64,000 nt of DNA from the NCBI GenBank assembly GCA_017447875.1, contig JAFSMP010000026.1, positions 62,001 to 126,000 on the forward strand, read 5' to 3'. The first letter of the stretch is position 1. Each line of letters begins with the position of its first letter. Positions 39,913-60,925 of this stretch are shown in pieces. Position numbers and translations under genes: made by a program. The notes beneath the pieces are model-generated. The model made no database searches. It saw nothing but the letters and a program-made list of their open reading frames with translations, and had not been told where the DNA came from. The DNA is from Paludibacteraceae bacterium. GTDB lineage: Bacteria > Bacteroidota > Bacteroidia > Bacteroidales > Paludibacteraceae.

Positions 39913-40059
39913 ATGAAAAAGCAATATATTCAACTCGCCACAACGATTCAGCAGATAGTTCCGACCGGTACAGTCTGCGTTGGTTCAGTACAGAGTAATG
40001 CCGGATTACAGCTCGCCGGCGGCTCGGACGGTTCCAGTGAAGAAGAAAGACCGTTCTAA
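39913..40059 (+). CDS. Small peptide, MKK-x-YI family, member 1
   Basis: A 48-residue peptide that starts MKKQYIQLATTIQQIVPTGT, has a single Cys at 22 and ends with Gly/Ser/Glu-rich sequence (GGSDGSSEEERPF). There is no signal peptide or membrane segment. It begins 50 bases after the giant CLPF-module protein and precedes the next giant protein by 57 bases. Two further peptides in the window share the start, the Cys position and the genomic setting. I recall similar short Bacteroidales proteins annotated only as hypothetical. The function is unknown. Confidence 0.75.
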   Translation: MKKQYIQLATTIQQIVPTGTVCVGSVQSNAGLQLAGGSDGSSEEERPF

Positions 40060-40116
40060 CGCGCGTGCATATATATAATAAGGTATATTGATTAACTAAC
40101 TTAAATATTTAGTATT

Positions 40117-43100
40117 ATGAGAAAACTATTTTTACTCATTCCGGCATTAGTGCTATCTTTAGCAATTAGTGCTGACGTGATTTACATTAACACAGAGACA
40201 TCAGATGCTCTGCGCAAGGCATTGAACAATGCTCAATCTGGTGACATCATCGAAATGGCTGCCGGTACGTATGTAGAGTCTCCAGAAAACTGGATTGCCT
40301 TCACTGCTAAAAATATTACCGTACGCGCAGCAGAAGGTGCTGAGGTTATTCTACAACCACAAGTTTCCATTCGTTTGAAGGAAGGCGCAACCGCTGAATT
40401 TATCGGCATTAAGTTTGATTGCGGACATCTAAGTGATGTGAATGCTTATAGCGATATCATTTTCCCTGCTGATGCCACAGACGGGAAAAATATCATTTTA
40501 AGAAACTGCGAATTCTATGGATGGACTCAAAATAATGCGATTATCTATTCTTCAGAGTCTAATACGCTGAATTCTCTTATCATCGAAGATTGTTATTTTC
40601 ACGATGTTACGAAGAGTTGCGTCTTCTTGCAGAATACATCGGATGCTGTCGAAGTTCAGATAAGCAATTCTACTTTTGCTAACATTGCAACCGTTACCGG
40701 ATCATACTATGCCGGTGTTATTGATATGCGTTCCACTACCGGTTCGCTCCTCGTTGATCATTGTACATTCTACAATGTGCAGGCAATGAGTACAGATTAC
40801 GCTGCTATCGGTAAAATCGGTTCCGGTACAACCGCTGTTGTTTCTAACTGTATCTTCGCAATGCCGACCAGCACAAGTGGTGTTAGAACAATTCGTGACG
40901 CTGTAACAGCAAATAACTGTCTCGTTTACAATTATTCAAGCGACTCCGGTTATGGTATGCAAGGCAACGTTACCAAAAACAATTGTTCCATTGCTAATCC
41001 TCTCTTTACGGATGCTGCTAATGGCGACTATTCTTTCGCAGGTAACTGGGTAACAATGGAACTCTCTCCGGCACGTGGCGCAGCTACCGATGGTTCGGAT
41101 CTCGGTGATCCGCGTTGGTACAGTGCAGAGGTTCTTCCTTCTGTTGATTTTGCTTCTCCGTACCAATTCGTAGGCGCCAAAGCACAAATTGCAGGCAACC
41201 TCTGGTATGATGATGTAAACGAGTATCTCTATTACAATAACAAATCGGAGTGCGGTGTAGCTACTTGGAAAATCAATGCTACACGTGCTTGCAGAGTTGA
41301 GGCTACGCTGAATATGAATGCAGCAACTACTACCGGACATAAGTTCAAAGTAGAGGTGCTGGATGCAGATGGTAATAGCGTAGGTGAAACGGCTGAACCG
41401 AGTCAGGTTAGTGCTGCCGGTGACATCGCTTTGCCGGATCAAATTGTTCTCCCTGCTGCAGGTAAGTACACAGTTAAATTATACAACCTTACAGGCTGGT
41501 CATCCGCTAAGATTGATGGTGTCACCTTCTCTTACGTAGGTGGTGACGTACAAGCTATGCCGGGTACAACGAACATTGACGATGCTTGGTTCTCTTCCAA
41601 TGGCACACGTACCGCTGGCGAATACATTGCTATTCCTTCCGGTCATCAGCACGAAGGTTGGGTAAAATGGAATGTATCTTTTGCTGAAGCTGCTAACTAC
41701 AATGTAACAGTTAATATTGACAACGCGAACGGTCACAATTACACTGTAGCTCTCTACACGAGCGAATCAGATGAATCTCCTATCACTATCGGTGAAGGTG
41801 GTCAGAAGAGTACCGTTGGTACGCTTGAGTTAGGTGCTTTGGAAGTTCCTGCCGGCAACTATATCATGAAGGTAACGAACGCTACCCAATACTCCGATGC
41901 TAAGTTGATCAGCGTTAAATTCTCTTATGCAGGTGGTGCAGCCGTTGATCTGTCGAAAGACGCTCCGGCTTCGCTTCTCGCAAACGCGGACGCTATCGTC
42001 TCTGACGATTGGACGATTGAGGACGGTAAGATTACCCACGCAGAAAGCAAAGCGCTGACCGGATGGGCTAAATGGAATGTAAACTGCGCAGACTATGCTA
42101 ACTATAATGTAACCGTGAACATTTCTTCTGATAACGGACACCTCGTACGCGTTGAGATATTCGAAGACGAAGCAGAACCAGCTATCTACACCTTGGATGA
42201 AACAGAAGCCACCAAATATCACGAAGGTAACCAAGCTATCGATTTAGGCAATATCGTTTTGGGTGCCCGCGAGTATGTAGTGAAAGTAAGCAACACTGCT
42301 GAATACTCGCATGTACAAATCGCAAGCATCGTTATTTCTTACGAAGGTGGTGCCCTTGTTAATCTCCCCAATGACGCTATTCCGTTTGCTGACGCTATTC
42401 TGAGTGAGAACGCAACGCGTAATCTGGAAAGTGTTCCGCAAGAGATTCACTTCGGTAGCCCGAATGCAAGCCAGTACGCAAAATGGAATATCCACGCTGT
42501 AGCAGGCTTGTATACCTTTACATTTGATGTCGTTGGTACTAACTATGGTACATATAAACTGGACATCTTGGAGGGTAATGACAATATCTTCACCTATACG
42601 CAGGGTAAGCAAGGAAGCGGTCAAGTTACTATCTCCAAAGTCTTCATTCCTGCAGAGGGTGATTATGTACTCCAACTGGCAAACACCAACAGCGGTGCTG
42701 ACGGCTATCTGACCAGCCTCGCTGCTACTGCTGCAACGGATGTATTTGTCCTTGACGAGAACACGGAAGATGACGGTAGCATCGCTGCAGCTGCCGCTAC
42801 TGAGGAAGAATATACATTCCTCCTCAAACGTTCCTTCACCGCAGGCAAGTATTATACCATCTGTCTCCCCGTTAGTTCATGGGACAGCGAGTTAAAACTT
42901 GCGTTTGGTGCAGATTATGAGTTATGGAAGATGACGTCGGCAGAGCAAAACGGAGATGAGATTGCTTTGAACTTCGAGAAAATCAATAGTGAGGGTTTCA
43001 GCGCCGGAAAACCGTATATCATCAAACCGTCGGTAGATGTTGTGAACCCCATCCTCTACAATAAGAAGCAGATTAAAAATTCTACCTACAACAATGTTCA

Positions 43101-43422
43101 GGAATTCGCCGCTGCTGACTTCGTAGGTACGTTCTACAAGGATGAGATTCCGGCAGGAGAGACTAACCTCTATCTGCAGAACAATGAGCTCTTCTATAAT
43201 GAGAACAACAATACGCCGATCAAGGGTACCCGCGCATGGGTTCGTCTCAAATCGCAAAGTGCTGCTGCTCCGAGAGCACGCATCGTCCTCAAAGGCCACA
43301 TGCCGACCTATATTGACCTCGTTAACGGAGAGAAGAAAACGGTCAAGGCCCTCGAGAACGGTCAGGTTGTTATCATCCGTGACGGTCAGAAGTACAACGT
43401 AATGGGTATCAAGCTCCAATAA
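40117..43422 (+). CDS. Giant secreted beta-helix protein with four sugar-binding-like repeats, CLPF module and sorting tail
   Basis: A 1101-residue paralogue of the preceding giant protein. Signal MRKLFLLIPALVLSLAISA; beta-helix about 20-335 ending in SDLGDPRW; four beta-sandwich repeats ending near 472 (FSYVGG), 602 (FSYAGG), 740 (ISYEGG) and 868, with motifs ATWKIN, WVKWNV, WAKWNV, YAKWNI; CLPF module about 893-1056 (YYTICLPVSS, GKPYIIKPS, RARIVLKG); tail at 1074-1101 (ALENGQVVIIRDG, YNVMGIKL). No catalytic motif is seen, so it is probably an adhesin or glycan binder exposed on the surface. Its beta-helix closely resembles that of the 19050-20777 protein. A second small peptide gene follows 19 bases after the stop. 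Confidence 0.8.
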   Translation: MRKLFLLIPALVLSLAISADVIYINTETSDALRKALNNAQSGDIIEMAAGTYVESPENWIAFTAKNITVRAAEGAEVILQPQVSIRLKEGATAEFIGIKFDCGHLSDVNAYSDIIFPADATDGKNIILRNCEFYGWTQNNAIIYSSESNTLNSLIIEDCYFHDVTKSCVFLQNTSDAVEVQISNSTFANIATVTGSYYAGVIDMRSTTGSLLVDHCTFYNVQAMSTDYAAIGKIGSGTTAVVSNCIFAMPTSTSGVRTIRDAVTANNCLVYNYSSDSGYGMQGNVTKNNCSIANPLFTDAANGDYSFAGNWVTMELSPARGAATDGSDLGDPRWYSAEVLPSVDFASPYQFVGAKAQIAGNLWYDDVNEYLYYNNKSECGVATWKINATRACRVEATLNMNAATTTGHKFKVEVLDADGNSVGETAEPSQVSAAGDIALPDQIVLPAAGKYTVKLYNLTGWSSAKIDGVTFSYVGGDVQAMPGTTNIDDAWFSSNGTRTAGEYIAIPSGHQHEGWVKWNVSFAEAANYNVTVNIDNANGHNYTVALYTSESDESPITIGEGGQKSTVGTLELGALEVPAGNYIMKVTNATQYSDAKLISVKFSYAGGAAVDLSKDAPASLLANADAIVSDDWTIEDGKITHAESKALTGWAKWNVNCADYANYNVTVNISSDNGHLVRVEIFEDEAEPAIYTLDETEATKYHEGNQAIDLGNIVLGAREYVVKVSNTAEYSHVQIASIVISYEGGALVNLPNDAIPFADAILSENATRNLESVPQEIHFGSPNASQYAKWNIHAVAGLYTFTFDVVGTNYGTYKLDILEGNDNIFTYTQGKQGSGQVTISKVFIPAEGDYVLQLANTNSGADGYLTSLAATAATDVFVLDENTEDDGSIAAAAATEEEYTFLLKRSFTAGKYYTICLPVSSWDSELKLAFGADYELWKMTSAEQNGDEIALNFEKINSEGFSAGKPYIIKPSVDVVNPILYNKKQIKNSTYNNVQEFAAADFVGTFYKDEIPAGETNLYLQNNELFYNENNNTPIKGTRAWVRLKSQSAAAPRARIVLKGHMPTYIDLVNGEKKTVKALENGQVVIIRDGQKYNVMGIKLQ

Positions 43423-43441
43423 CCTCTAAAACTATAGCCTT

Positions 43442-43600
43442 ATGAAAAAGAATTATATTATACCAAGTACGCAAAGCGTAGTATTCTATGCCGGCAATAT
43501 TTGTCAGGCTGCAAGTCCGTTTGCCGGACCTAATGTAAACGTTACCGGTCCGAACGTAGGCCTCGGCGGTGGAGCACAAGATATCGGTAATCCGGATTAA
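43442..43600 (+). CDS. Small peptide, MKK-x-YI family, member 2
   Basis: A 52-residue peptide that starts MKKNYIIPSTQSVVFYAGNI, with the single Cys at 21 and then Pro/Asn/Gly-rich sequence (VGLGGGAQDIGNPD). It has no signal peptide. It lies 19 bases after the second giant CLPF-module protein and is followed by a strong terminator, so both belong to one transcript. It shares the start and Cys position with the peptides at 39913 and 60720. Confidence 0.8.
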   Translation: MKKNYIIPSTQSVVFYAGNICQAASPFAGPNVNVTGPNVGLGGGAQDIGNPD

Positions 43601-43633
43601 TCCCATACCCGAGTGCCCTTTGCACTCTCCATA

Positions 43634-43667
43634 CAAGCATGGCGGGTCGAATGACTCGCCATGCTTG
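43634..43667 (+). terminator. Strong rho-independent terminator
   Basis: CAAGCATGGCG and CGCCATGCTTG pair, with GTC/GAC continuing inside, and ATTTTT follows. A second small hairpin GAGTGC-GCACTC lies just before it at 43611-43627. Confidence 0.92.
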
Positions 43668-43698
43668 ATTTTTAACGACGACAATTTTTGATCATACC

Positions 43699-46600
43699 AT
43701 GAAACGCACCTTTCTTTCCTTATTGTTATGCGTGCTTGCGTGCGCGTTAGTACATGCCGCAACGATTAACGTTACGCCGGGTTCAGGTACCCTCCGAACG
43801 GCGGTCACCAATGCTGCCGCAGGCGATGTACTGGTACTAACTACCGGTGAGTACAACGAGACTTCCACCATCACCACCTCGGTGGCGCTGACGATTAAGG
43901 CTGCTGAAGGGACCCAACCGGTCGTAAAATCCACCAAACGGATTGAGGTGAATGCAGACTTCTCGCTCGAGGGCGTGACCTTCCTCTGCTCCTATCACTT
44001 GATCCAGGTAAACGCTACTACTCCGATTAACTTCACCGTGCGCAATTGTATCTTCCGCATGGGAACAGAATCCGCCAACTCTTATCGTGCCATCTATATT
44101 GACTCCGCGCCGACGCGTGTCAAGAATGTCACGATCACAGGTTGTACCTTCGACGGAGGTAAAGGTGCCGGACGGTTTATCTATGTCTATCCGGGTAGTA
44201 ACGTGGAGGCACTGGAAGGACCGGTCACTATCGACCACTGCACGTTCTATAATTGCAATGACAACCGCGGTGTCTATCCGGCTAACATCGACAACACGCA
44301 TATCACCAACTGCATCTTCATGAATGCGGAAGAGCGGGAAGGTGCCAATAGTTTTGCGGTGTACGGTTCCAACTCCTACGTCCATAACTGTATGGCGTTC
44401 AATGCGCCGATCAAAGTAGGTACCGGTGGTTCGCAGGCCAACTGCTCCGCACGCAACCCCTATTTCGTAGATGCCGCAGCGGGTAATTTCCAACTATATA
44501 AGAACAGTCCTGCGGTCAATGCCGGCACGGACAACAGCACACTCGGTGATCCGCGTTGGGGTGTTTCGGCAGAGGACTACGACACCAGCGACGAACCGTA
44601 CGTGCCCTACAAACAGCCGTACTCCATGGCTCCGACGACCAATTCGGTGAAGATCCTATGGCAGATGAACGAAGAGACCGCACCCACCAATGCCGTCGTC
44701 TATTACGGCACTGATCCGGCGAACCTCTACCAAAGTATCGCCACTTCCGACGGTTGGAACGTACCCGATGAAGGCTATATGCATATTGTCACCCTTACCG
44801 GTCTGCAACCCAACACCCGCTATTATTTCACCGTCGGTGCCTCAGAGAAGCGGCGCTTTGACAAGGTATGCAGCACCAAGACCGCACCTGAGCAAGGTAG
44901 TGCCTTCCGTATCTTTACGATCAGCGATATCCATGGTAATGCCTGCAAGAACTGGTCGAATATGCAGGACTTCATCTGTGCTCTCAACTGCGACATCTCG
45001 CTCATGAACGGCGATTTTGTCTCGTCCAAAGGTAATGACCGTAACTGGAATAACTATTTCTTCACACCCGGTGCACCATTCCTGAGTCAAGTGCCGTTGA
45101 TGTCCTCGTCAGGCAACCATGAGACCGGTGATCCACGCGGATACCGCTGGTCGTCGTTCTATGACTATTTCCATCAGTTTGCTCATGAGGGCGCGTGCGA
45201 AGGAGACACTATCGACCCGCGCAATGAAGCCTATTTCCATTTCATGTACGGCAATGCGGAAGTGATCATGCTCAATCTCAACGGAGACGAGAGTTCGCCT
45301 GAGTTTTTACCCGGCAGCCGTCAATACGCGTGGGCAGACTCCGTATTAAATACGTGTACGCGCCCGTGGATCATCGTCTGCCACCACGTCGGTGTGCATA
45401 CCACCGGTTACCATGGGCAGTGGGCAGATGAACCGCGCCAGATGGGTGCGCTCTTCGAGAAACATGCGGCACTCGGCAAACGGATCATCTCCCTCTCCGG
45501 CGATGATCACTCCTTCGAGCACCTCTATAAAGACGGCGTGCATTATGTGCGCCCGGGATGCGGACGAGACGCCAACTACGACCAGCAGAAACAACTGCAA
45601 GACTACAAATACTCGATGTTCTATCGGAAAGTATCCTGTTTCTCAACGCTCGACATGGCGGCTGACGCTTCTTCGATCGCCCTCACGGCATACGACTCCG
45701 TAGGCAACCCCTTCTACACCTATACGTTCTTGCATGACAACGAGGTCATCATTCCTGCGGTCAACTTCACCGTACCGGCTACCGAAGTGAGTGCCGAAGA
45801 CTCGATCCTGCTCCGCTGGTTCACGTTTGATCCGGTCGGCGATGCAACCGTTTCCCTCTACTGCGGACAGACACCCGATGCCACTGACGTCACCGGTCTC
45901 ACACCTATCGTCACCAACCTTCCGGGTTCGGCAGAGAAATACATGTGGCATACGCGCAATGTCATGCCCAAAGGTAAGTACTACCTCTATGCTGTCGTCA
46001 CTTCCGGAGGACAGACGTATATGAGCACCAACAAACCCGTTGTGAACCTGCTGGAAGACACGACTCCTCCACCCTCTCCTACAGACCTTAGCGGAAAAGA
46101 GGAAAACGGACACTATCTCCTCACCTGGCTCAACCCGACCCACCTCGTGCAGATGGACGAACTGCTGACGGATTTCAGCGACGGTGTCGGACCCATGGAG
46201 AGCGCGAATGAAGACGGGGCGACTATGAGCCTCAGCCTCGCTGACGGTGCGCTCCAATGCGACTATTCCCTCACCAAAGCCTGGGCAACCGCCGCGGCAG
46301 AGTATGTCTTCGCGCAACCCGCCGACATGCACCTTACCCCTATTCTGACCTTCCGTCTCAAGGGTAACGGCACCGCCACCGACCTGCGTATCGTAGCGAA
46401 GAATATGTCCGCCAATCATGAAGACTGGTGGTACACCGAGAGCATCAACCTCTCCAATGCCGATTGGCAGGACATCACCCTTGACCTGCGCACCCTGCAG
46501 GCTTTCGAGTGGTACACCAACACCGATGACCACAACCAATGCGAAGGCATCGTGCGTCTCTCCTTCGGCGTCTCCACCGGCAATCCCGTCAGCGGTACGT

Positions 46601-46986
46601 TCTGGATAGATGACCTGCATCTGACCGGCGACATCTACCCTGCCCCGGATTACCAGGAGACCGTCATCGTTCGTAAGGACGATGCGTTCCCTGCGTCACC
46701 CACCGATGGTACGGAGATCTACCGCGGCACCGCCGAGACCTGCATCGATGCTTCCGCTGTAGCCGGACAACTGTACTACTACACCGCCTTCGCCTTCGAT
46801 GACCGCAATAACTGGTCGGTTCCTACTCCTGCTGCCCAATGGCGGTCCGATAATGCGTCTGCACTCGCTACGCCCAATACCAAATCACCCGTCCCGCAGA
46901 AATTCCTGCGAAACGGGCAATTATTGATTCAGCGCGACACCAAAATCTACACGGTTATAGGTTCGCTTTTCTCTTTCGACTTTTGA
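43699..46986 (+). CDS. Secreted beta-helix / metallophosphoesterase protein with altered sorting tail
   Basis: A 1095-residue protein. Signal MKRTFLSLLLCVLACALVHA; beta-helix about 20-290 ending in STLGDPRWG; Fn3-like domain about 305-390; phosphoesterase about 400-650 with ISDIHGN, LMNGDFVS, SSGNHETGD, VCHHVGVHTTGYHGQ and SGDDHSFEH; a linker domain; a jelly-roll domain about 800-975 ending in GTFWIDDLHLTG; an Fn3-like segment; then the start of the shared tail (KFLRNGQLLIQRD, IYTVIG). The final residues SLFSFDF come from a period-7 repeat and replace the usual ending. It probably dephosphorylates a surface polymer. It converges with the gene at 46994 with seven bases between. Confidence 0.82.
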   Translation: MKRTFLSLLLCVLACALVHAATINVTPGSGTLRTAVTNAAAGDVLVLTTGEYNETSTITTSVALTIKAAEGTQPVVKSTKRIEVNADFSLEGVTFLCSYHLIQVNATTPINFTVRNCIFRMGTESANSYRAIYIDSAPTRVKNVTITGCTFDGGKGAGRFIYVYPGSNVEALEGPVTIDHCTFYNCNDNRGVYPANIDNTHITNCIFMNAEEREGANSFAVYGSNSYVHNCMAFNAPIKVGTGGSQANCSARNPYFVDAAAGNFQLYKNSPAVNAGTDNSTLGDPRWGVSAEDYDTSDEPYVPYKQPYSMAPTTNSVKILWQMNEETAPTNAVVYYGTDPANLYQSIATSDGWNVPDEGYMHIVTLTGLQPNTRYYFTVGASEKRRFDKVCSTKTAPEQGSAFRIFTISDIHGNACKNWSNMQDFICALNCDISLMNGDFVSSKGNDRNWNNYFFTPGAPFLSQVPLMSSSGNHETGDPRGYRWSSFYDYFHQFAHEGACEGDTIDPRNEAYFHFMYGNAEVIMLNLNGDESSPEFLPGSRQYAWADSVLNTCTRPWIIVCHHVGVHTTGYHGQWADEPRQMGALFEKHAALGKRIISLSGDDHSFEHLYKDGVHYVRPGCGRDANYDQQKQLQDYKYSMFYRKVSCFSTLDMAADASSIALTAYDSVGNPFYTYTFLHDNEVIIPAVNFTVPATEVSAEDSILLRWFTFDPVGDATVSLYCGQTPDATDVTGLTPIVTNLPGSAEKYMWHTRNVMPKGKYYLYAVVTSGGQTYMSTNKPVVNLLEDTTPPPSPTDLSGKEENGHYLLTWLNPTHLVQMDELLTDFSDGVGPMESANEDGATMSLSLADGALQCDYSLTKAWATAAAEYVFAQPADMHLTPILTFRLKGNGTATDLRIVAKNMSANHEDWWYTESINLSNADWQDITLDLRTLQAFEWYTNTDDHNQCEGIVRLSFGVSTGNPVSGTFWIDDLHLTGDIYPAPDYQETVIVRKDDAFPASPTDGTEIYRGTAETCIDASAVAGQLYYYTAFAFDDRNNWSVPTPAAQWRSDNASALATPNTKSPVPQKFLRNGQLLIQRDTKIYTVIGSLFSFDF

Positions 46987-46995
46987 CTTTCGACT
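46971..46995. repeat. Period-7 GTCRAAA array across a gene end
   Basis: tctttcgac, ttttgac, tttcgac (complement of GTCGAAA units). It supplies the last codons and stop of the plus-strand gene and reaches the stop of the converging gene. Confidence 0.85.
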
Positions 46996-47563
46996 AAAAA
47001 AGCGTAATCTCACCGAAGAACTGCGGACAATGGAAGTCCGGTTTCGGTAAATCAATCGGCCGCCAACTCAAGAAGTGCGGCCGTTTGGTTTTATCGGCAC
47101 ATTTATAGAAATTGGCTTTTAGCACTTGCGGGAACTCGGGCTTCTTATCGCGGAAGATCAGATCCAACGGGATACGCTCTTCCACCTTCCATTCAAACAG
47201 ACCGTCTTTCTCCTCAAACGCTGCTCTTGGATAATCGCATTTGCGCTCAATACGTGCCATCTCTGCCGCACTCAACGGTACGACATCTTCTGCCCTGCCC
47301 TTTCTGCGACTGCCTACCATCGCACCAATACAGTTGCACTCGAAATTGAAGTAATGGTCATCGCCCGGTACCTGGCAGAAGAACTCCACACAGCTGTCCT
47401 CCCATACGGGGCCTTGATCCTCTGTCGTCACCGCCCGCAGTTGCTCACCCCTCACATGCCATTTAAGCAACAGCCATTCATGGTCATTGCTTACTTCGAC
47501 GGATACTTCCGGCTTCTCCGGAAACTCCGCAGGCCAATTGACCTTATTTACTGCACAAGTCAT
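46994..47563 (-). CDS. CBM9-like carbohydrate-binding protein
   Basis: A 189-residue protein without a signal peptide. It shows the CBM9-like pattern: LLLKWHVRGEQLRAV near 32, DQGPVWEDSCVEFFCQV near 50, YFNFECNCIGAMVGSRR near 72, and a C-terminal HFLSWRPIDLPKPDFHCPQF. Short proteins of this type (PF16011-like) are common beside glycan loci and lack known enzymes. The start overlaps the end of the kinase gene by 20 bases, so the two are translationally coupled. It is the last gene of the long minus-strand operon. Confidence 0.78.
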   Translation of the reverse strand: MTCAVNKVNWPAEFPEKPEVSVEVSNDHEWLLLKWHVRGEQLRAVTTEDQGPVWEDSCVEFFCQVPGDDHYFNFECNCIGAMVGSRRKGRAEDVVPLSAAEMARIERKCDYPRAAFEEKDGLFEWKVEERIPLDLIFRDKKPEFPQVLKANFYKCADKTKRPHFLSWRPIDLPKPDFHCPQFFGEITLF

Positions 47564-48626
47564 GGATGATCTGTTTCATTTGAGGTTCAACTTTCTCTTG
47601 TTCTTCGACCAAACGTAACTGTGCTTTGGTGCGCACTAAGTTATGCTCCGGATATTGGATCTTGTAGTACGTGTCGCCGTTGATGTAGTCGGTGAAGAAC
47701 CGCACAGTCTGCATGTAACTCAGCAGACGGCAACCGTAAGGCAGCAGTTCTTTCTCCAGATCCGTGAGGAAGGTAGCCTCTTTGAGGTAACCTCGTGTAT
47801 AGGCTTCAAAGATCGCCAGATCCACATGGATATTGTCGAGGTTCGGATCATCCTCCAGACCCGAGTTCGCCGCCGTACGCATGAAGTCACCGAAGTCACT
47901 GAGCACAAAGCCCGGCATGACGGTGTCCAGATCCACGATACAGATCGGGCGTCCCTGCTCATCAAAGAGCACGTTATTAACCTTCGTATCACAGTGGTTG
48001 ATATGTTTCTGTAACTTCCCTTCTCTAAACAGTCTCTCCGCCAGACACATCGCTTCGCGTCGTTCATCGATCCACGCGATGATCTCCGCACAAGCCGCTT
48101 TACGTCCTGCGGCATCTGCCTTCAACGCCTCATCAAGTTGCCATAAGCGGTACTCCATGTTATGGAAATTAGGAATCGACTCGCATAGTGCATCGAACGG
48201 CAGATCCGCCAACTGGCATTGGAAACGACCGAATGCCTGTCCCGTCAGTTCTGCGGACTCAGGCGTCACTTTCTCTTGCGAACTCGTGCCTTCGATCAGC
48301 ACATACACCCGCCAGTAGTCCCCTTCCGGAGTCCGGTAATAGAGCTTACCGTCATGCGTGGGAACGACCTCCAGCACCTTACGGGCGATATCCGTCTCAC
48401 CGGCTGCAGTCAACTTCGCACGGATATGGTCGGTCACCACCTGAATATTCCGCATCAGTCCCTCCACATTGGTGAAGATATGATGGTTGATACGTTGCAG
48501 GAAATAGGATTTCTCACCCGCCTTCTTGGCGCGCACGATGAAGGAGTCATTGATGAACCCGATCTTCAATGGCTGCGGTTCGCCTACTTCATTCTGAATA
48601 GCAAAATGCGATAAGATTTCTTTCAT
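47544..48626 (-). CDS. NahK-like N-acetylhexosamine kinase (APH fold)
   Basis: A 360-residue aminoglycoside-phosphotransferase-fold kinase. The catalytic loop is HINHCDTKVNNVLFD near 208, metal binding is IVDLDTVMPGFVLSDFGDFM near 230, and an N-terminal nucleotide lobe precedes them (SYFLQRINHHIF). The DTKVNNVLFD and DLDTVMPG pair is typical of NahK, the anomeric kinase that makes GlcNAc/GalNAc 1-phosphate. This fits the AgaS-like and GatZ/KbaZ genes in the window. Other APH kinases act on choline or homoserine, so the substrate remains an inference. Confidence 0.78.
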   Translation of the reverse strand: MKEILSHFAIQNEVGEPQPLKIGFINDSFIVRAKKAGEKSYFLQRINHHIFTNVEGLMRNIQVVTDHIRAKLTAAGETDIARKVLEVVPTHDGKLYYRTPEGDYWRVYVLIEGTSSQEKVTPESAELTGQAFGRFQCQLADLPFDALCESIPNFHNMEYRLWQLDEALKADAAGRKAACAEIIAWIDERREAMCLAERLFREGKLQKHINHCDTKVNNVLFDEQGRPICIVDLDTVMPGFVLSDFGDFMRTAANSGLEDDPNLDNIHVDLAIFEAYTRGYLKEATFLTDLEKELLPYGCRLLSYMQTVRFFTDYINGDTYYKIQYPEHNLVRTKAQLRLVEEQEKVEPQMKQIIHDLCSK

Positions 48627-48648
48627 GGTCGTTGATTCGTTAATTACG

Positions 48649-53770: not shown

Positions 53771-53773
53771 TCC

Positions 53774-53813
53774 TATTTAACGTTTTAACAATTTAACCAT
53801 TTAACGTTTTAAC
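53774..53813. repeat. NNTTTAAC octamer array at a gene end
   Basis: tatttaac, gttttaac, aatttaac, catttaac, gttttaac. It contains the stop of the gene at 53809 and fills the gap to the next gene. Confidence 0.88.
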
Positions 53814-55905
53814 GTACTTGTGCGCCTTGTGCATTATAGAGCTTGCCGTTGCGCTGGATATAGAGCACACCGTCGATCATGAACTTCTGTCCCTGGATCG
53901 TAGCGTTCACATGCTCCAGACCCTCTTCTATCTCCGACGGGATAACCGGTTCTGCGGGTTGATCCGGGTCGGTGGCAGGAGTCGGTTCCGGTATTTCGAT
54001 CGTCAACGCCAGGTAACGCAAGTTACGCGGATTCGAACGAATGGACTGATGGGTGTTCTTATCGTACTCGTAATACGTGATCTCACCCGGCAGTGCGATA
54101 CTATCGATAGCTAATACACCTACATAGCGGTCCATATCGTTATCGAACGTACCGCTGACGGTGTTGTTCTCGAAGGTCACGTCTGCATATTTCTCCAGCG
54201 GATAGAGCGTTGCTTTACCCTGCGGATTGAGGATGCTCAGTTCTTGGCTGTACGGCAGACTCAAGGTGAAGTACGGTAACTTGTTCGGATTGATCTCCGG
54301 CATCGCATATTTCACGAGCAGCGAAGAAGCGAAGACACCTTTGTAAGCCGTGGTATAAGCCGTTGAAGAACCATCGTTCTCCGGGCAGAAGACATTGAGT
54401 ACAGTGTAGTTACCCTTACGACCTTTGCCGTCCAAATCCGTCCAAGAATCGAACAGGTTATTCGGGCAGGTGTACGGCGCTTTATTACGCACGTTGATTT
54501 GCATAAGGAAATACAAGCCCTTCTTGTCCGGCGTCAATGCCACATCAATACCATACTCGTATTGCGGGCCACCCGGACGAACTACGTTCGCCAATTTACC
54601 GCCACGGGTCAGCGTCAACAAGTAGCTGTCCTGACCACCGTTCGTATTATGCTGCATCCATTGATTATCGATGGTCTCCACACCGGAGTTCTTGCCCTTC
54701 GGTAAAGTACCGATCTCATCCGGCAGACGGCTGCCTCCGTGACGACCGGTCATCATACCGGCTGCGTACCAAACACCTTCGTCCGTGCAGCGCAATGCAT
54801 AACATACAGCATCCGAACCTTCGGTACCGTTGCTATAACCCCAGTTATAGAACCATTTGAACTCACCTGCGAGGTCAAAAGCGAAGAATGCAGTGTGGGT
54901 AAATGCGGCATCAAACGCATAGCCGTTATTGAACACATCCTCCATATCGTCAATACGCAGGTCACCGCTGTGGTGGTTAACCGCCAATACCACTTGTCCG
55001 ATCGGGCTGACTGCTACTGCACCTGCTTCGTCTGCCTCATCGCCATCGATCATATGAGACCATTTCTCTGTACCCGCTGCGCTGTATGCCAACAGAACCG
55101 CATTGCTGGCGGTAGCGGCAATCGCTTTGCCGTTGAAGGTTGTGCTACCTGCCAAAGCTGTACCTACATAGACATTATCATTGGCATCTACCGCTACCGA
55201 AGGTTTCGAATACGAAGCCTGTCCGTCGCAGCGGAAATCATACCATACGAGACTACCGCTATTCGTATACTTGGCTACGATCAACTGTGCATCGTTGTTG
55301 AAGTCACCCATCACTTCGCCGCCCCAAGTGAGCGTTGCATCACCGTCCAACAGACCGGTAATGATGACGTTGTTCTTCGAGTCAATAGCCAGACCACCGG
55401 CTTTAGCACCTAATGCAGCAATCTCCCATGCACGAACGGCTGTACCGTCAGCACGTAACTTCAGTACGTACAGTGCCGCCTCACCCATGTTGGTGTCATC
55501 TACCGGCATCGTTTTCGTGCCGACATTAATGGACTTGTTATACGCACCCAATACGAAGATATTGCCGTATCCGTCCACCGCCAAATCAGCAACCGTCGCA
55601 CTACCTTGATTAACCAGCGAATAGACCCAAAGAACAGAACCTGACGGAGATACTTTGATGATGACCGCATCCCCTTTGTCGGCAGCACTTTGGGATACCA
55701 GGGTCTTCTCTCCCACTTTCACTTTATCGCCGCCATACAATGCTGCCACATAGACATTACCGTCCTTGTCCACCGCCATGCGTTGCGGATCAATCTGACT
55801 ACCGGTCTCATTGGATCCCCAATAAGCGTACCAGTCCATACTGCGTTGCGCACTTGCAACGATTGTCAGGCATACCATCATGCCTAAAAGGAAGAATTTT
55901 TTCAT
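53809..55905 (-). CDS. Secreted SBBP-type beta-propeller protein with sorting tail
   Basis: A 698-residue protein with a Sec signal (MKKFFLLGMMVCLTIVASA). Residues about 25-520 carry repeats of the form AVDKDGNVYVAALY, AVDGYGNIFVLGAY, AIDSKNNVIITG and AVDANDNVYVGTAL, typical of SBBP beta-propellers. A beta-sandwich linker and a Pro/Thr-rich stretch (PEPTPATDPDQPAEP) precede the shared tail (KFMIDGVLYIQRNG, YNAQGAQVR). It follows SusD by 21 bases, a position often held by a surface glycan-binding protein. No enzyme activity is assigned. Confidence 0.8.
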   Translation of the reverse strand: MKKFFLLGMMVCLTIVASAQRSMDWYAYWGSNETGSQIDPQRMAVDKDGNVYVAALYGGDKVKVGEKTLVSQSAADKGDAVIIKVSPSGSVLWVYSLVNQGSATVADLAVDGYGNIFVLGAYNKSINVGTKTMPVDDTNMGEAALYVLKLRADGTAVRAWEIAALGAKAGGLAIDSKNNVIITGLLDGDATLTWGGEVMGDFNNDAQLIVAKYTNSGSLVWYDFRCDGQASYSKPSVAVDANDNVYVGTALAGSTTFNGKAIAATASNAVLLAYSAAGTEKWSHMIDGDEADEAGAVAVSPIGQVVLAVNHHSGDLRIDDMEDVFNNGYAFDAAFTHTAFFAFDLAGEFKWFYNWGYSNGTEGSDAVCYALRCTDEGVWYAAGMMTGRHGGSRLPDEIGTLPKGKNSGVETIDNQWMQHNTNGGQDSYLLTLTRGGKLANVVRPGGPQYEYGIDVALTPDKKGLYFLMQINVRNKAPYTCPNNLFDSWTDLDGKGRKGNYTVLNVFCPENDGSSTAYTTAYKGVFASSLLVKYAMPEINPNKLPYFTLSLPYSQELSILNPQGKATLYPLEKYADVTFENNTVSGTFDNDMDRYVGVLAIDSIALPGEITYYEYDKNTHQSIRSNPRNLRYLALTIEIPEPTPATDPDQPAEPVIPSEIEEGLEHVNATIQGQKFMIDGVLYIQRNGKLYNAQGAQVR

Positions 55906-55926
55906 AAGTATATAAATTTAGTTGGT

Positions 55927-57441
55927 TTAATATCCTTCGTTTTGTCCCAGATCCGGGTTGATGAACACCTCATCATAAGGTATCGGCAGAAGTATCTCAT
56001 ACGCCTGGAAAGCTGTGTACTTAGCGCCCACATTCGGTTCATTCACCGAGCGCATGTATGTCACAAAATCATTCGCATTCGGATAGAGACGCATCAGGTC
56101 GAACCAGCGCTGGTTCTCAAAGCACATCTCCGTTCTGCGCTCATGGAAGATTGCCGCACGCAAGGTCGGATAAGCCGCAGCATAGGTTGCATTCGCCATT
56201 GAGGTGGCATAGTCCTTGAGCGTGGAACTCGGACGCGTCGTGCGTACCTTATCCAGATACATAATGGCATTGGCGGATGCATTGCCTTCCACCCGCTCAT
56301 ACGCCTCGGCGAGCATCAGATAGACATCTCCGAAGCGCAACTCGAACCATATGTTTCCTCCATATCCGGAAGGGTTCGTATCGATATATTTCTTGGTGTA
56401 GTACGTGCTGTTATACGGACGAATGGCCCAACTCAAGCGTGCACGATCCATCACCGGGAAACCGTTCTTCGTATCCTCGAACTCATTGAACAGGTTCTCT
56501 TGCCCCGCATTGAATCCGCGACCGGGCAATGCCGATGTCAGACCCGTTGCACCGGAAGGCTGGAAATACTGCGCGAAATTCGAACCCTCGTCCGCATTCG
56601 CCATGTACATAATGGGGAAGATGATCTCCTCATCCGTCTGTCCTTCGAGCGTGAAGAGTTTGTTATACGCTTTACCAAAACCCGTATAACCACTCACCGT
56701 CAGTGCTTTCTCCAGATACGTGATGGCATTATTATACCGGCTCGACATGCCTTGTGTAGCCGCCTGCTGCAGATACACTTTTCCGAGCAACGCACACGCT
56801 GCCGTACGGGACGCATGACCGAAACGGGCTCCGGTGCAGTTAGCCGGCAGCATACTGCCGTCTGCGATCGTCTGAAGGTCCTCGATGATGAAGTCATACA
56901 CCTCCTCTACCGAGTTACGTTTCAGTTTCTTCGTCTCTTCCGTTCCCGACACCGTATGCCGCATGATCGTCACCGGTCCCCAAAGACGCACGAGATAGAA
57001 ATGACTCAACGCGCGGAGGAACATCGCCTCGCCTTTGATACGTGCCTTGTCCGCATCGCCCATCGGTACATCGTCGATATGCTCCAGCAGGACGTTACAA
57101 CGATGGATGCAGAAATAGAACGAGTTGTATATCTCCGCTACGATCGTGTTGGAACTCGTCACATTATGACTGACGAAGGTATAGTACAAACCGCCGGACG
57201 TACCCATATCGGTCGTCGTGGTATTGTCAGACTTCATCTCCGTCACGAAGAACAACTTGTCGTACGCCGGACGCATCGCCTGATAGGCAGAACTGAGCAG
57301 ACCCTCCATATCCGCCGAATCGCGATAGAACTTGCTGTCATCGAACGAGTCGGGATCCTTCAGGTCCAGGAACTTATTATCCTTGCAACCGGTAGCCATC
57401 ACCGCTACCACTGCCATTATGACAAAATAGATTCGTTTCAT
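55927..57441 (-). CDS. SusD/RagB outer-membrane lipoprotein (second locus)
   Basis: A 504-residue protein. The signal MKRIYFVIMAVVAVMATGC gives a lipobox Cys19. SusD features: SADMEGLLSSAYQAM, ARIKGEAMFLRALSHFYLVR near 134-153, NSVEEVYDFIIEDLQTI, LRFGDVYLMLAEAYER, HERRTEMCFENQRWFDLMR and the ending PDLGQNEGY. It pairs with the SusC at 57454. ATGs at 57447 and 57450 are alternative starts; 57441 gives the best signal peptide. The start lies 12 bases after the SusC stop. Confidence 0.95.
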   Translation of the reverse strand: MKRIYFVIMAVVAVMATGCKDNKFLDLKDPDSFDDSKFYRDSADMEGLLSSAYQAMRPAYDKLFFVTEMKSDNTTTTDMGTSGGLYYTFVSHNVTSSNTIVAEIYNSFYFCIHRCNVLLEHIDDVPMGDADKARIKGEAMFLRALSHFYLVRLWGPVTIMRHTVSGTEETKKLKRNSVEEVYDFIIEDLQTIADGSMLPANCTGARFGHASRTAACALLGKVYLQQAATQGMSSRYNNAITYLEKALTVSGYTGFGKAYNKLFTLEGQTDEEIIFPIMYMANADEGSNFAQYFQPSGATGLTSALPGRGFNAGQENLFNEFEDTKNGFPVMDRARLSWAIRPYNSTYYTKKYIDTNPSGYGGNIWFELRFGDVYLMLAEAYERVEGNASANAIMYLDKVRTTRPSSTLKDYATSMANATYAAAYPTLRAAIFHERRTEMCFENQRWFDLMRLYPNANDFVTYMRSVNEPNVGAKYTAFQAYEILLPIPYDEVFINPDLGQNEGY

Positions 57442-57453
57442 AGTCATCATCAA

Positions 57454-60400
57454 TTAGAATGTCAGTTTAATACCGCCGCTAAACGACCGTGCCAACGGGT
57501 ATGTACCGAAGTCCAGACCCGGTGCCGTATTCGATGCATTATAGTCCACATCAGGGTTATAACCCGTGTATTTCGTCGCCGTAAACACGTTATCCACCGA
57601 GAAATAGAGATAGAACTTACTCAGATGGATAGCCTTGAATGCCTTGTTATCCGGGATGGTATAACCGAGCGTCAGGTTCGTCATTCTCAGGAACGAAGCA
57701 TCTTCCACGAAATAGGTTGAGAACTTCGTGTTGAGGTTCTTCTGGCTGCGGTTAGCACGGAACATCATATCGTCGGTTACCGCATACGGTTGGGTATATT
57801 CGCCGCGGTAGCGGTTCAGACCCACACTCATCGAGTTCACACCGCCCTCGAGGTTACAGATATAATAGCGCGAGAAGTTGATCACCTGGTTTCCGTACTG
57901 TCCGTCGAACGACATGGAGAAACTCAGGCCCTTCCAACTGATGGAGGTATTGAATCCGTAGGAGAACTTCGGATAGTTATTGCCGATGATGTCGCGGTCG
58001 TCCTCAGTGATCTTTCCGTCGCCGTTCACATCTTTCCATTTCACGTCACCCACGTACACATTCTTGTAATCCGAAACCGCCGGACCCTTCAGTTCGTATC
58101 CTTCTTCACCGACGTGCTTCGCATCTTCGCATATCAGCGCATACTCGTCGGCATTGATGATACCTTCGGAAACCATACCGTAGTACGAACCGATGGCGTA
58201 GCCGTTGCGGGTGATATGGGTCAACTGCTGCCGCTGTGCCTTTATCAGGATGTCGTCATCCAGTCCGTACACGCGGTTGCGGTTCAGCGATATATTGAAG
58301 CCTATGTTCCACTTCACGCCGGCCATGTTGATCACGTTCGCGTCCACTTGGAAGTCACCACCCTGGTTAATCACACGACCGTGATCCAGGTTCGTCCACA
58401 TACTCGTCGCACCGGTCACGGCACTGACGGTGTTCTGGTACAGCAGGTCCGTCGTCTTACTATAGTAATAGTTCATCACGAGGCTCAGACGTCCCGACCA
58501 GAAGGTCATATCCGTACCTACGTTCACCTGCGAAGTTTTCTCCCATCCCAGGTCCTGATCCACCGATGTCGGATAGTACGTCACGACCGCCGCAGGATCG
58601 GAACCGAAGACATAAGAGCCTTGTTTGATGGTAGCTATATGACGATAGTTGGAGATGTTGTTATTACCCGAGATACCCCATGAAGCACGAAGCTTGGCGG
58701 TGTATATATCCTGGATATGCTCCGCCCAATGCTCGTTGGTGATGTTCCATCCGGCGCTCACCGAGGGGAACAGACCCCAGCGGTTGTTCTTTCCGAATCG
58801 CGAGCAACCGTCGCCACGCAGCGTGACCGACACCGTATAACGATGGTCGTAGTTATACATCGCACGACCGAAGACAGACATCAGCGACCAAGCGATCTTA
58901 TCCGTCTTGGCGCTCGTACCGTTCTCATCGGTCTCCGTCGGTTTGGCGGCACTCAGCTCCGTGATACGGTCATCGGGCAGTGCGCCCAGTACCGTTGCTG
59001 CGTCGATGTTATTATACACCTTCTTTTGCATCGAGTATCCGACTACGGCACTGATTGTGTGCTTGTCTGCGAAGGTGTTGTCGTAGCTCACCGTTGCCTC
59101 CAAGAGCCAGTCGGTGTTGAAGTCGCGGTTGTCCTTGGCTACCACCAGCGAGTTCGTCTCGTAGTTACCAGGTGCGTAATTACTCTGACCGAGCCACGAC
59201 GGACGATAGAGGTTGTAGATCTGATCCGCTATCTGTACACCGCCGTTGAGCTTGATGAACAGACCGTTGTAGATCTTGTAACTGAGATTCGTGTTGATCG
59301 ACGCACGCATCTTCGTGTAGTACTCCTCACGTCCGTTAGCGATTGCCACGGGGTTCTCACCGCCGAAGCACATATACGATGTCTCGCCGTTGCGGTAGCT
59401 CCAGCCTAAGGCATACGACCCGTCTTCGTTATACGCCGGATAGGTAGGCGGCATACCGAGTGCGTTCAGGATTACACCGTCGTTGAACGCCAGACCGTCC
59501 GTACGAACCACGCGCTCCTTGACGTAATACATATTCGTATTCACGCCTACCGTGAAGCGGTCGGTCACGTTGATGTCCATATTCAGACGACTCGTCACGC
59601 GCTGGTGATTGGACGGAGCCACGATACCGTCCTGATTGAGGTAACCGGCAGAGAACATATATTTGAATTTGTCCTTACCGCCGCTGACCGAGAAGTTCAC
59701 CTTGTGCATCGGCGCATTGCGGAAGATCTCATCCTGCCAGTCGGTGTCGTAGTCCGAATCGATGATGTCCGGGCAAAGGAGCATCGTATTGATGTTCGGT
59801 GCACCGGTAGCGATACGGGTTGCATTATCGTCCGTACGGCTGTGGTACCAGTTGACGGCATCATCCGATCCGTAGATTGACGGGTTATTACGCAGGAAGT
59901 CGAAATAATTATTGTTGTATCCGTCCATATGCAACTGCTTGAACTCCGCCGCGTTCATCATCTTCACTTTCCGCTGCACCTGCTGCATCGAGAACTGGTA
60001 ATCCAACTGTACCTTCGGTTTACCTTCCGCACCGCGCTTGGTCGTGATCAGAATCACACCGCCGCCTGCACGGGAACCGTAGATAGCGGCCGAAGCGGCA
60101 TCCTTCAGCACCTCGATTGACTCCACATCACTCGGGTTGATGAATACATCTTTCGATGCCGGGAATCCGTCCACTACATACAGCGGTTCAACACCTCCAT
60201 AGACCGAGTTCACTCCACGGATATGAATCGTTGTACCGGCACCCGGAGCACCGCTAGTCTGCTTGATTTCCACACCCGGCGTATGACCGATGAGGGCTTG
60301 CTCCAGCGTAGATGTGGACATATTCATCTCCTCCGTCTTCACGGACGAGATAGCACCGGTCAGGTCGCTCTTACGCACCGTACCGTAACCGATAACGACC

Positions 60401-60702
60401 ACGTCTTCGAGCAACTCCGAGTCTTCCGAGAGCGTCACCTTAACAGGATCCGAATTCTGGACACTGACTTCTGTCGTCTTGTATCCCACATAGGAGACCA
60501 CTAACTTCGCTCCTTGCGCTACGCTCAAGGCAAAATGACCGTCTATATCGGTCACTGTACCTTCCGTAGTGCCTCGCACGACCACCGACGCGCCGATCAC
60601 CGGCTCGCCTTTGTCGTCCACTACTGTTCCCTGCACCGCTATCTGTGCCCATATCCCGGCACACAGTCCCAACAGGAACAAGGTATTCAAAATGCGTTTC
60701 AT
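57454..60702 (-). CDS. SusC/RagA TonB-dependent outer-membrane transporter (second locus)
   Basis: A 1082-residue protein. Signal 1-19; regulatory domain about 22-95 (VQGTVVDDKGEPVIGASVVV); plug with DVVVIGYGTVRKSDLTGAIS, TIHIRGVNSVYG and PLYVVDGFP; a large barrel ending TYPLARSFSGGIKLTF. It imports an oligosaccharide. The plug motif is canonical here, unlike the first SusC (VSLGYS). It is directly preceded, with 17 bases between, by the third small peptide gene, so peptide and transporter are co-transcribed. Confidence 0.97.
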   Translation of the reverse strand: MKRILNTLFLLGLCAGIWAQIAVQGTVVDDKGEPVIGASVVVRGTTEGTVTDIDGHFALSVAQGAKLVVSYVGYKTTEVSVQNSDPVKVTLSEDSELLEDVVVIGYGTVRKSDLTGAISSVKTEEMNMSTSTLEQALIGHTPGVEIKQTSGAPGAGTTIHIRGVNSVYGGVEPLYVVDGFPASKDVFINPSDVESIEVLKDAASAAIYGSRAGGGVILITTKRGAEGKPKVQLDYQFSMQQVQRKVKMMNAAEFKQLHMDGYNNNYFDFLRNNPSIYGSDDAVNWYHSRTDDNATRIATGAPNINTMLLCPDIIDSDYDTDWQDEIFRNAPMHKVNFSVSGGKDKFKYMFSAGYLNQDGIVAPSNHQRVTSRLNMDINVTDRFTVGVNTNMYYVKERVVRTDGLAFNDGVILNALGMPPTYPAYNEDGSYALGWSYRNGETSYMCFGGENPVAIANGREEYYTKMRASINTNLSYKIYNGLFIKLNGGVQIADQIYNLYRPSWLGQSNYAPGNYETNSLVVAKDNRDFNTDWLLEATVSYDNTFADKHTISAVVGYSMQKKVYNNIDAATVLGALPDDRITELSAAKPTETDENGTSAKTDKIAWSLMSVFGRAMYNYDHRYTVSVTLRGDGCSRFGKNNRWGLFPSVSAGWNITNEHWAEHIQDIYTAKLRASWGISGNNNISNYRHIATIKQGSYVFGSDPAAVVTYYPTSVDQDLGWEKTSQVNVGTDMTFWSGRLSLVMNYYYSKTTDLLYQNTVSAVTGATSMWTNLDHGRVINQGGDFQVDANVINMAGVKWNIGFNISLNRNRVYGLDDDILIKAQRQQLTHITRNGYAIGSYYGMVSEGIINADEYALICEDAKHVGEEGYELKGPAVSDYKNVYVGDVKWKDVNGDGKITEDDRDIIGNNYPKFSYGFNTSISWKGLSFSMSFDGQYGNQVINFSRYYICNLEGGVNSMSVGLNRYRGEYTQPYAVTDDMMFRANRSQKNLNTKFSTYFVEDASFLRMTNLTLGYTIPDNKAFKAIHLSKFYLYFSVDNVFTATKYTGYNPDVDYNASNTAPGLDFGTYPLARSFSGGIKLTF

Positions 60703-60719
60703 GGTTTAAATAGATATTT

Positions 60720-60875
60720 TTAGAGGTTTTGATTCGGATCACCCGGGATGTCACCACCACCAAGCGTTCCACCGCCTATCTGTGTACCTCCACCTACAGG
60801 ACTTCCGTCACACAGATGCATTTGCGCGTTTACCTTCACGATCTCCACTGTCGGATAAATATAATTCTTTTTCAT
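60720..60875 (-). CDS. Small peptide, MKK-x-YI family, member 3
   Basis: A 51-residue peptide that starts MKKNYIYPTVEIVKVNAQMH, has a single Cys at 22 (HLCDGS) and then Gly-rich sequence (GGGTQIGGGTLGGGDIPGDP). It has no signal peptide. A strong Shine-Dalgarno match AAGGAGAT (60883-60890, complement) lies seven bases before the ATG, unusual in this genome. It sits 45 bases after the BIG2 CLPF-module protein and 17 before SusC. Same start, Cys position and upstream protein type as the peptides at 39913 and 43442. Confidence 0.8.
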   Translation of the reverse strand: MKKNYIYPTVEIVKVNAQMHLCDGSPVGGGTQIGGGTLGGGDIPGDPNQNL

Positions 60876-60882
60876 ATATCTT

Positions 60883-60890
60883 ATCTCCTT
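60883..60890 (-). promoter_or_regulatory. Strong Shine-Dalgarno site of the third small peptide
   Basis: AAGGAGAT on the minus strand, seven bases from the ATG at 60875. Most genes in the window show no such site. Confidence 0.75.
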
Positions 60891-60893
60891 AAC

Positions 60894-60925
60894 AATTTAA
60901 CACTTTAACTATTTAACGGTTTAAC
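60894..60925. repeat. NNTTTAAC octamer array at a gene end
   Basis: aatttaac, actttaac, tatttaac, ggtttaac. The last unit contains the stop of the BIG2 protein gene. Confidence 0.88.

What the first reader, a model, noticed from the sequence alone, without database searches (positions are those of the whole stretch)
39913..60875. A family of three tiny peptides (48-52 residues), each directly downstream of a giant surface protein
Three short genes at 39913-40059, 43442-43600 and 60720-60875 start MKK-[NQ]-YI, carry exactly one Cys at position 21-22, lack a signal peptide and end in Gly/Pro/acidic sequence. All lie 19-50 bases after the stop of a giant tailed protein on the same strand, two in one plus-strand cluster and one in the minus-strand SusCD operon. 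One has a strong Shine-Dalgarno site, rare here. Three of three in the same setting is unlikely by chance. I recall similar short Bacteroidales proteins only as hypotheticals. They could be precursors of a modified peptide, chaperones or regulators of the giant proteins, or signalling peptides (inference).
Basis: partly seen in the sequence, partly recalled or inferred. Interest (0 to 1): 0.85.

Follow-up and report, generated by a model that had tools for sequence, protein, structure and literature searches.

The report
Small leader-like peptides beside surface proteins
Rumen bacteria carry many tiny genes placed right after genes for a particular kind of exported surface protein; the peptides look like raw material for a peptide-trimming system known from quite different bacteria, so they may be processed partners of those surface proteins.

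Summary
The three ORFs are real genes of an unnamed peptide family. A profile finds it in 139 of 178 genomes of the genus (rumen/gut Paludibacteraceae), with up to 24 matches each. It is under purifying selection (dN/dS about 0.3) and matches nothing over cut-off in Pfam or NCBIfam. The start (KKxYxxP) is conserved; the Cys is not.

What predicts the peptide is not protein size or the type IX secretion (T9SS)-like tail but an unnamed ~150-residue module just before the tail. In a sample retrieved by the surface protein, 50 of 51 module-bearing genes have a peptide and 0 of 27 tail-only genes do; counting only loci new to the session, 32 of 33 against 0 of 27. In the window, 3 of 9 tails have the module, and exactly those 3 have peptides.

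Most likely mechanism (about 0.45): the peptides are YxxP-leader precursors recognised in trans by the genome's discrete RRE (PqqD) and trimmed by the adjacent archaeal-type signal-peptidase-like protease, as in the LPP RiPPs described in Bacillota. RRE and protease occur in 14 of 16 genus genomes. In three of them a YxxP peptide ends the same gene run. Processing itself is inferred. Main rival: a cytoplasmic partner of the module.

The parts
39913..40059 (+). peptide P0001 (48 aa), 50 nt after the tailed gene
43442..43600 (+). peptide P0002 (52 aa), 19 nt after the tailed gene
60720..60875 (-). peptide P0003 (51 aa), 45 nt after the tailed gene and 17 nt before the SusC gene
36716..39862 (+). 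T9SS-like tailed surface protein upstream of P0001 (beta-helix, DUF5123); start chosen by eye at the first ATG
39266..39733 (+). penultimate module (xTxCLP..NRAY..RRAR) of that protein
   Evidence: C56:101266-101733
39734..39859 (+). T9SS-like tail of that protein
40117..43422 (+). tailed surface protein upstream of P0002 (DUF5123, DUF4957)
42826..43296 (+). penultimate module of that protein
   Evidence: C56:104826-105296
43300..43419 (+). T9SS-like tail of that protein
43634..43667 (+). terminator-like stem-loop (15 pairs, then T run) 34 nt after P0002, so P0002 may be the last gene of the unit
   Evidence: 7 such sites found in the region against 3.4 (sd 1.9) in shuffles
60921..63947 (-). 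tailed surface protein upstream of P0003 (Big_2)
61050..61520 (-). penultimate module of that protein
   Evidence: C56:123050-123520
60924..61046 (-). T9SS-like tail of that protein
60885..60890 (-). Shine-Dalgarno-like AAGGAG before P0003

Best explanation
Each peptide is the second gene of a two-gene unit whose first gene encodes a T9SS-exported surface protein with a particular C-terminal module (shown: linkage, coding, selection). The peptide's N-terminal ~22 residues, KKxYxxPxxxVxxL, act as a leader bound by the genome's discrete RRE (PqqD). The neighbouring archaeal-type signal-peptidase-like protease cuts the leader just before the conserved [AG]-[AGS]-Ser. The variable Gly/Pro/acidic remainder, perhaps phosphorylated on that Ser by an HprK-like kinase, then works with the module-bearing protein. 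One processing set would serve many dispersed precursors. Shown: motif, RRE and protease in the genomes, three genomes with RRE, protease and a YxxP peptide in one run of genes. Inferred: binding, cleavage, modification, export and the joint function.
For: YxxP start: in 164 distinct peptides found with an anchor [YF]xx[PL], Y in 100% and P in 98%; a Ser 18-22 residues after the Tyr in 154 of 164. Conserved N part, variable C part. PqqD/RRE over cut-off in 14 of 16 genus genomes. Of the 14 RRE loci read, 13 have next to the RRE a gene with the Ser, His and Asp motifs, and the 14th a diverged homologue. Best NCBIfam match TIGR02228 archaeal-type signal peptidase I, E 8e-7 for L405, below its cut-off; S30/H68/D83 invariant in 6 aligned, against S29/H68/D93 in LppS (PMC13381572). 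The one RRE tested matches NF033530 lasso PqqD at E 4e-4, below cut-off, and the RRE profile weakly matches TfuB1 (E 0.44). In that alignment the Asn and Asp line up, at the spacing of LppB N33 and D70, which bind the YxxP motif; by eye all 13 RREs keep both; this mapping is mine. HprK-like kinase near 6 of 14, NTP_transf_5 near 2 of 14. In G002 and G004 by profile, and in G003 by motif only, a YxxP peptide follows the giant tailed gene next to the protease-RRE pair.
Against: No binding or cleavage evidence. In 11 of 14 RRE loci no such peptide was seen near the machinery by profile or motif. Three near cases are only somewhat more than expected from peptide density (my estimate, about 1). The link to a genome holding an RRE is weak: peptide matches in 12 of 14 RRE+ against 0 of 2 RRE- genomes, p 0.05. 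The extended LPP motif (VLxHQxIxFET) is absent; position 10 is Thr in 48%. No transporter was sought. A RiPP reading does not by itself explain the strict tie to the module. No NCBIfam model matched the peptides beyond chance level, and no PDB chain matched the peptide profile.
Confidence: 0.45

Rival explanations
1. The peptide is a cytoplasmic partner (secretion chaperone or anti-folding factor) of the module in the surface protein encoded just upstream, with no processing.
For: One peptide per module gene: 50 of 51 against 0 of 27, across 19 passenger clusters among 52 module proteins of that sample. Same pairing in five genomes of other families, 18 of 30. No evident signal peptide.
Against: Peptide and tail similarity hardly correlate once the passenger is unrelated (rho 0.06; the module itself was not compared). 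Peptides also stand before, or fused to, lipoprotein-like proteins and a secreted nuclease. N part conserved across unrelated partners, C part variable.
Confidence: 0.25
2. The peptide is a ligand, immunity or inhibitory partner of the surface protein, exported by an unknown route.
For: Strict gene pairing; C part tracks the passenger best (Mantel 0.29), which may be mere co-inheritance.
Against: Very short, strongly conserved start, no evident signal peptide; the few domains recognised in the last ~480 residues of 100 upstream proteins are Ig-like, repeat, beta-helix and carbohydrate-binding, not evident toxins.
Confidence: 0.12
3. Regulatory short ORF: its translation, not its product, controls the neighbouring gene or the mRNA 3' end.
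For: Short, at operon boundaries; a terminator-like hairpin follows P0002.
Against: dN/dS about 0.3 in both halves; spacer length varies widely; in three Bacteroidaceae/Prevotellaceae loci it is fused in frame to the next secreted protein.
Confidence: 0.08
4. A chance or annotation artefact.
For: Only three in the window, weak similarity to each other (27 and 32% identity to the first).
Against: 139 of 178 genus genomes, selection, neighbourhood counts.
Confidence: 0.01

Closest known systems
LPP (linear polyphosphorylated peptide) RiPPs of Bacillota, PMC13381572 (abstract and sections 6, 7, 10, 11, 12 read; passages of others)
   Same: Short precursors with a YxxP leader, variable C part and a conserved Ser near the start of the core; discrete RRE next to an archaeal-type signal-peptidase-like protease; HprK-like kinase and NTP transferase near some of the RREs here.
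   Different: Bacteroidota, while the paper calls LPP restricted to Bacillota; most precursors scattered over the genome and tied to T9SS module genes instead of inside one cluster; leader lacks VLxHQxIxFET; transporter not sought; no product known.
Lasso peptides with discrete B1 (RRE) and B2
   Same: YxxP leader and PqqD-type RRE (weak similarity to TfuB1).
   Different: No B2 (PF13471) over cut-off in 16 genus genomes, one match below it in G008; cyclase not searched; no conserved Thr just before the core.
T9SS cargo genes with a dedicated neighbour (type B CTD proteins with PorP/SprF-like genes; KLIKK proteases with potempins): recalled, not tested; potempin papers seen only as a listing
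   Same: A helper gene encoded right beside the T9SS cargo gene.
   Different: Those neighbours are larger, exported proteins; here a ~50 aa peptide with no evident signal peptide.

Membership tests
LPP RiPPs | YxxP motif in precursor N-terminus, variable C-terminus | tested here: met
LPP RiPPs | Extended leader YxxPxVLxHQxIxFETxxS | tested here: not met
   position 10 T48 V24, no HQ or FET; a Ser 18-22 after Tyr in 154 of 164
LPP RiPPs | Discrete RRE next to archaeal-type signal-peptidase-like protease | tested here: met
   13 of 14 RRE loci by motif, the 14th diverged; present in G000 (L392). Protease family matches are below curated cut-offs
LPP RiPPs | HprK-like kinase and NTP transferase | tested here: inconclusive
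   kinase near 6 of 14 RREs (best TIGR04249 E 5e-10, below cut-off), NTP_transf_5 near 2 of 14; none seen beside the G000 pair; rest of the genomes not searched
LPP RiPPs | Precursor gene inside the cluster | tested here: not met
   only 3 of 14 RRE loci have a YxxP peptide nearby
LPP RiPPs | MsbA-like transporter | not tested
LPP RiPPs | Phosphorylation of core Ser3, RRE-dependent leader cleavage | not testable with these tools
   needs biochemistry
Lasso peptides | B2 leader peptidase (PF13471) | tested here: not met
   0 of 16 genus genomes over cut-off; G008 has one match below it, E 1e-4
Lasso peptides | macrolactam cyclase | not tested
   not searched
T9SS cargo (upstream proteins) | Known C-terminal sorting domain model | tested here: inconclusive
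   Por_Secre_tail E 0.1 and TIGR04183 E 0.065, both below cut-off; own tail profile gives 103 matches in G000
T9SS cargo (upstream proteins) | Translocon SprA in the genus | tested here: met
   PF14349 in 15 of 15 genus relatives; not found in the 77% complete G000

The most novel reading that the evidence does not exclude
A dispersed RiPP-like system in Bacteroidales: a single RRE-protease(-kinase) set matures a dozen or more different peptides per genome, each encoded with and working on one module-bearing T9SS surface protein, so that the secreted surface carries a matched set of processed peptides.
Probability: 0.3. Interest if true: 0.9.

Novelty: new variant of a known kind. Interest (0 to 1): 0.75.

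Why it matters
If right, it extends YxxP/RRE leader processing to Bacteroidota, shows precursors scattered genome-wide rather than clustered, and links them to surface proteins of the type IX secretion pathway, whose C-terminal module here has no known role. Even if the processing idea fails, the near one-to-one link of an unnamed module with an unnamed peptide makes the function of both directly testable, and the same pairing occurs in other Bacteroidales families.

Tried and rejected
Tail-peptide co-evolution or a mobile tail+peptide cassette: Mantel correlations are weak and nearly vanish for unrelated passengers (rho 0.06). In the part of the DNA alignments printed (the output was cut), the longest alignments run through tail, spacer and peptide, while many short ones start at the peptide. 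Lasso peptides: no PF13471 over cut-off. Pfam and NCBIfam on peptides: only chance-level matches. Module against Pfam (nothing convincing) and PDB (nothing). Rfam on 36000-64000: no match. P0003 on plasmids: no match. Literature: ten searches turned up no description of these peptides, judged from listings; 'MKKNYI' occurs in no held paper. TIGR04189 for SprA was uninformative, replaced by PF14349. Mechanism by structure: not possible, the tool is off.

Cautions. dN/dS used pairs picked by peptide similarity and is biased; one search is used instead. The Fisher values treat loci as independent; they are related. Of 136 peptides (E below 0.02), 16 with no ORF of 100 aa or more ending in the 500 nt upstream were dropped, 9 of them near a locus edge. 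Of the 120 left, 108 follow a tail by pattern, but two of these (L085, L131) are wrong on later reading, so 106. The query and the module and tail profiles (A6, A7, A4) were built from peptide-bearing loci; one search kept the best 80 of 156. 18 of the 50 positive loci had already been fetched through their peptide; without them it is 32 of 33 against 0 of 27. Module scores separate cleanly: 36.6 bits or more against 4.1 or less. L309, L313 and L328 were added by hand to because the ORF scan stopped at 130 aa; the HMM alone gave 47. The six genomes were picked because they had peptide matches; one of them (G434) has a peptide match but no module match.
Full report
What is there. The three ORFs exist as described and lie 50, 19 and 45 nt behind proteins that end in a T9SS-like tail. 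They resemble one another weakly (27 and 32% identity to the first) but belong to a large family. Searches with P0002 and P0003 found more such peptides in the same genus, and a profile of 29 found matches in 139 of 178 genus genomes at E up to 0.1, up to 24 per genome and 15 in the window's own. In an order-wide sample it reached 17 of 393 genomes at E up to 0.01, three of them of the own genus. Named records retrieved with the surface protein are mostly Paludibacteraceae or 'uncultured Bacteroidales' MAGs from ruminants and other animals. Several of these contigs have the same lengths as contigs of the unnamed genus genomes, which is how I place the genus.

Coding and selection. For 26 gene pairs chosen by similarity of the upstream protein, dN/dS is 0.29 for the N part and 0.33 for the C part of the peptide, against 0.19 for the tail and 0.24 for the passenger. 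In 164 distinct peptides, found with an anchor [YF]xx[PL], Tyr-x-x-Pro is nearly invariant, position 15 is hydrophobic (L, V, I or F) in about 83%, and a Ser follows 18-22 residues after the Tyr in 154. Cys is absent from 88. The C part is rich in Gly, Ser, Pro and Asp. Some genus members end in APxRKVF- or RRTDVF-like sequence, and those of other families often in R..W.[DE].

What the peptide goes with. The own genome has 103 matches to a tail profile. Of 100 inspected, 12 are followed by a peptide. Counting the 13 peptide places plus two found, 12 of the 14 with readable upstream sequence follow a tail directly; one sits behind an insertion and one is fused to a lipoprotein-like protein. Upstream proteins share an unnamed penultimate module. 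It has 12 matches in G000, each before a tail: nine are followed directly by a peptide, one has its peptide about 660 nt on behind a DUF2442-like gene, and two lie at contig ends with no peptide seen in about 270 nt. Of the 88 other inspected tails three have a peptide (9 of 10 against 3 of 88, p 1e-9).

A sample retrieved by the last 200 residues of the surface protein (80 loci, 78 with enough sequence) gave 50 of 51 with module and 0 of 27 without (47 by HMM, 3 fused forms added by hand). The query came from peptide-bearing proteins, and 18 of the 50 loci were already known through their peptide; new loci alone give 32 of 33 against 0 of 27. The one exception, L278, has 339 nt of downstream sequence and an aberrant tail end. 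The 52 module-bearing proteins of that sample with enough passenger fall into 19 passenger clusters. In five genomes of two other families with quite different tails (unnamed; I call them Prevotella-type by resemblance), 18 of the 30 module loci examined have a peptide. These genomes were picked because they had peptide matches, and 43 module matches were listed. Of 104 peptide loci from the peptide-based sample 88 have the module; three of the other 16 score just below the threshold, and the rest appear by eye to have other penultimate domains.

Fusions and other settings. In L309, L313 and L328 (Bacteroidaceae/Prevotellaceae) the peptide follows a module+tail gene and continues in frame into a signal-like sequence of the next protein, in L313 a nuclease (PF01223 E 3e-37). 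In G000 contig C52 a peptide is fused to a lipoprotein-like protein (lipobox by eye, no Pfam match), while L044, L049 and L011 have the peptide as a separate gene before such a protein. These show that the peptide is read as protein and is not confined to one partner type.

Machinery. The YxxP start recalled the leaders read by RREs of lasso peptides. Lasso B2 is not found over cut-off, but PqqD is present in 14 of 16 genus genomes. Beside it, in 13 of 14 loci read, lies a gene for a protein of about 140-180 aa with Ser, His and Asp motifs, best matched by archaeal-type signal peptidase I, below the curated cut-off. The 14th has a diverged homologue and a kinase. An HprK-like kinase is near six and an NTP_transf_5 protein near two. 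This is the core, without the transporter, of the LPP clusters described in PMC13381572, where LppB presents a YxxP leader to LppS (S29, H68, D93). The protein here has S30, H68, D83. In G002, G003 and G004 the giant tailed gene next to the pair is itself followed by a YxxP peptide: 29 and 15 bits in G002 and G004, motif only in G003. In the other 11 loci no such peptide was seen.

Reading. Established by computation: family, selection, module linkage, RRE-protease pair in the genus. Inferred: that this pair acts on these peptides, where it cuts, whether the Ser is modified, how the product leaves the cell, and what it does with the module. Because the extended LPP motif and the single-cluster layout are not met, the family is not filed as LPP; it may work like LPP. 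The chaperone reading explains the strict module pairing more directly and stays a serious rival.

Limits. In that count G004, G010, G011 and G013 are taken as peptide-negative because they are not among the matched rows, whose unmatched rows were partly unlisted. G004 counts as a miss although a peptide was later seen beside its RRE. Fisher tests ignore relatedness.

Noticed in passing
L117 (G000 C53, near 10530-9870) and L180 (C53 end): Small genes resembling DUF2442 (E 0.012, below cut-off; L117) and DUF4160 (E 2e-6; L180) lie behind the tail of two module genes, in L117 between tail and peptide, in L180 at the contig end. In L085 and L131 a ~190 aa protein (recalled as four-helix-bundle type) lies just before the peptide. 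The spacer may be an insertion site.
   Followed up: partly
G000 C66:43042, C25:4988, C37:3032, C34:13068, C6:80319 (L196, L199, L214, L240, L242): Another small ORF type follows tails of other proteins: a PRK/PRR-like motif, then a hydrophobic stretch and an Arg/Lys-rich end, like a sorting signal; no Pfam match for the three tried.
   Followed up: partly
L020, L025, L083, L139, L156, L166: A second peptide ending in RKVF-like sequence lies about 1.2 kb before another family peptide, with a tailed gene of about 333-373 aa between them.
   Followed up: no
L399, L401 (G004, G002): The RRE-protease pair sits in a run with large secreted proteins, in L399 a C10 (streptopain-like) protease, and with a ~180 aa secreted protein containing CNCF near its end.
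   Followed up: no
L150/L068, L156/L139: Peptide segments nearly identical in DNA although the upstream proteins differ, suggesting recombination within or beside the peptide gene.
   Followed up: partly
window genome G000: 103 matches to the tail profile in 2.2 Mb, a large share of T9SS-like cargo for the genome size.
   Followed up: no
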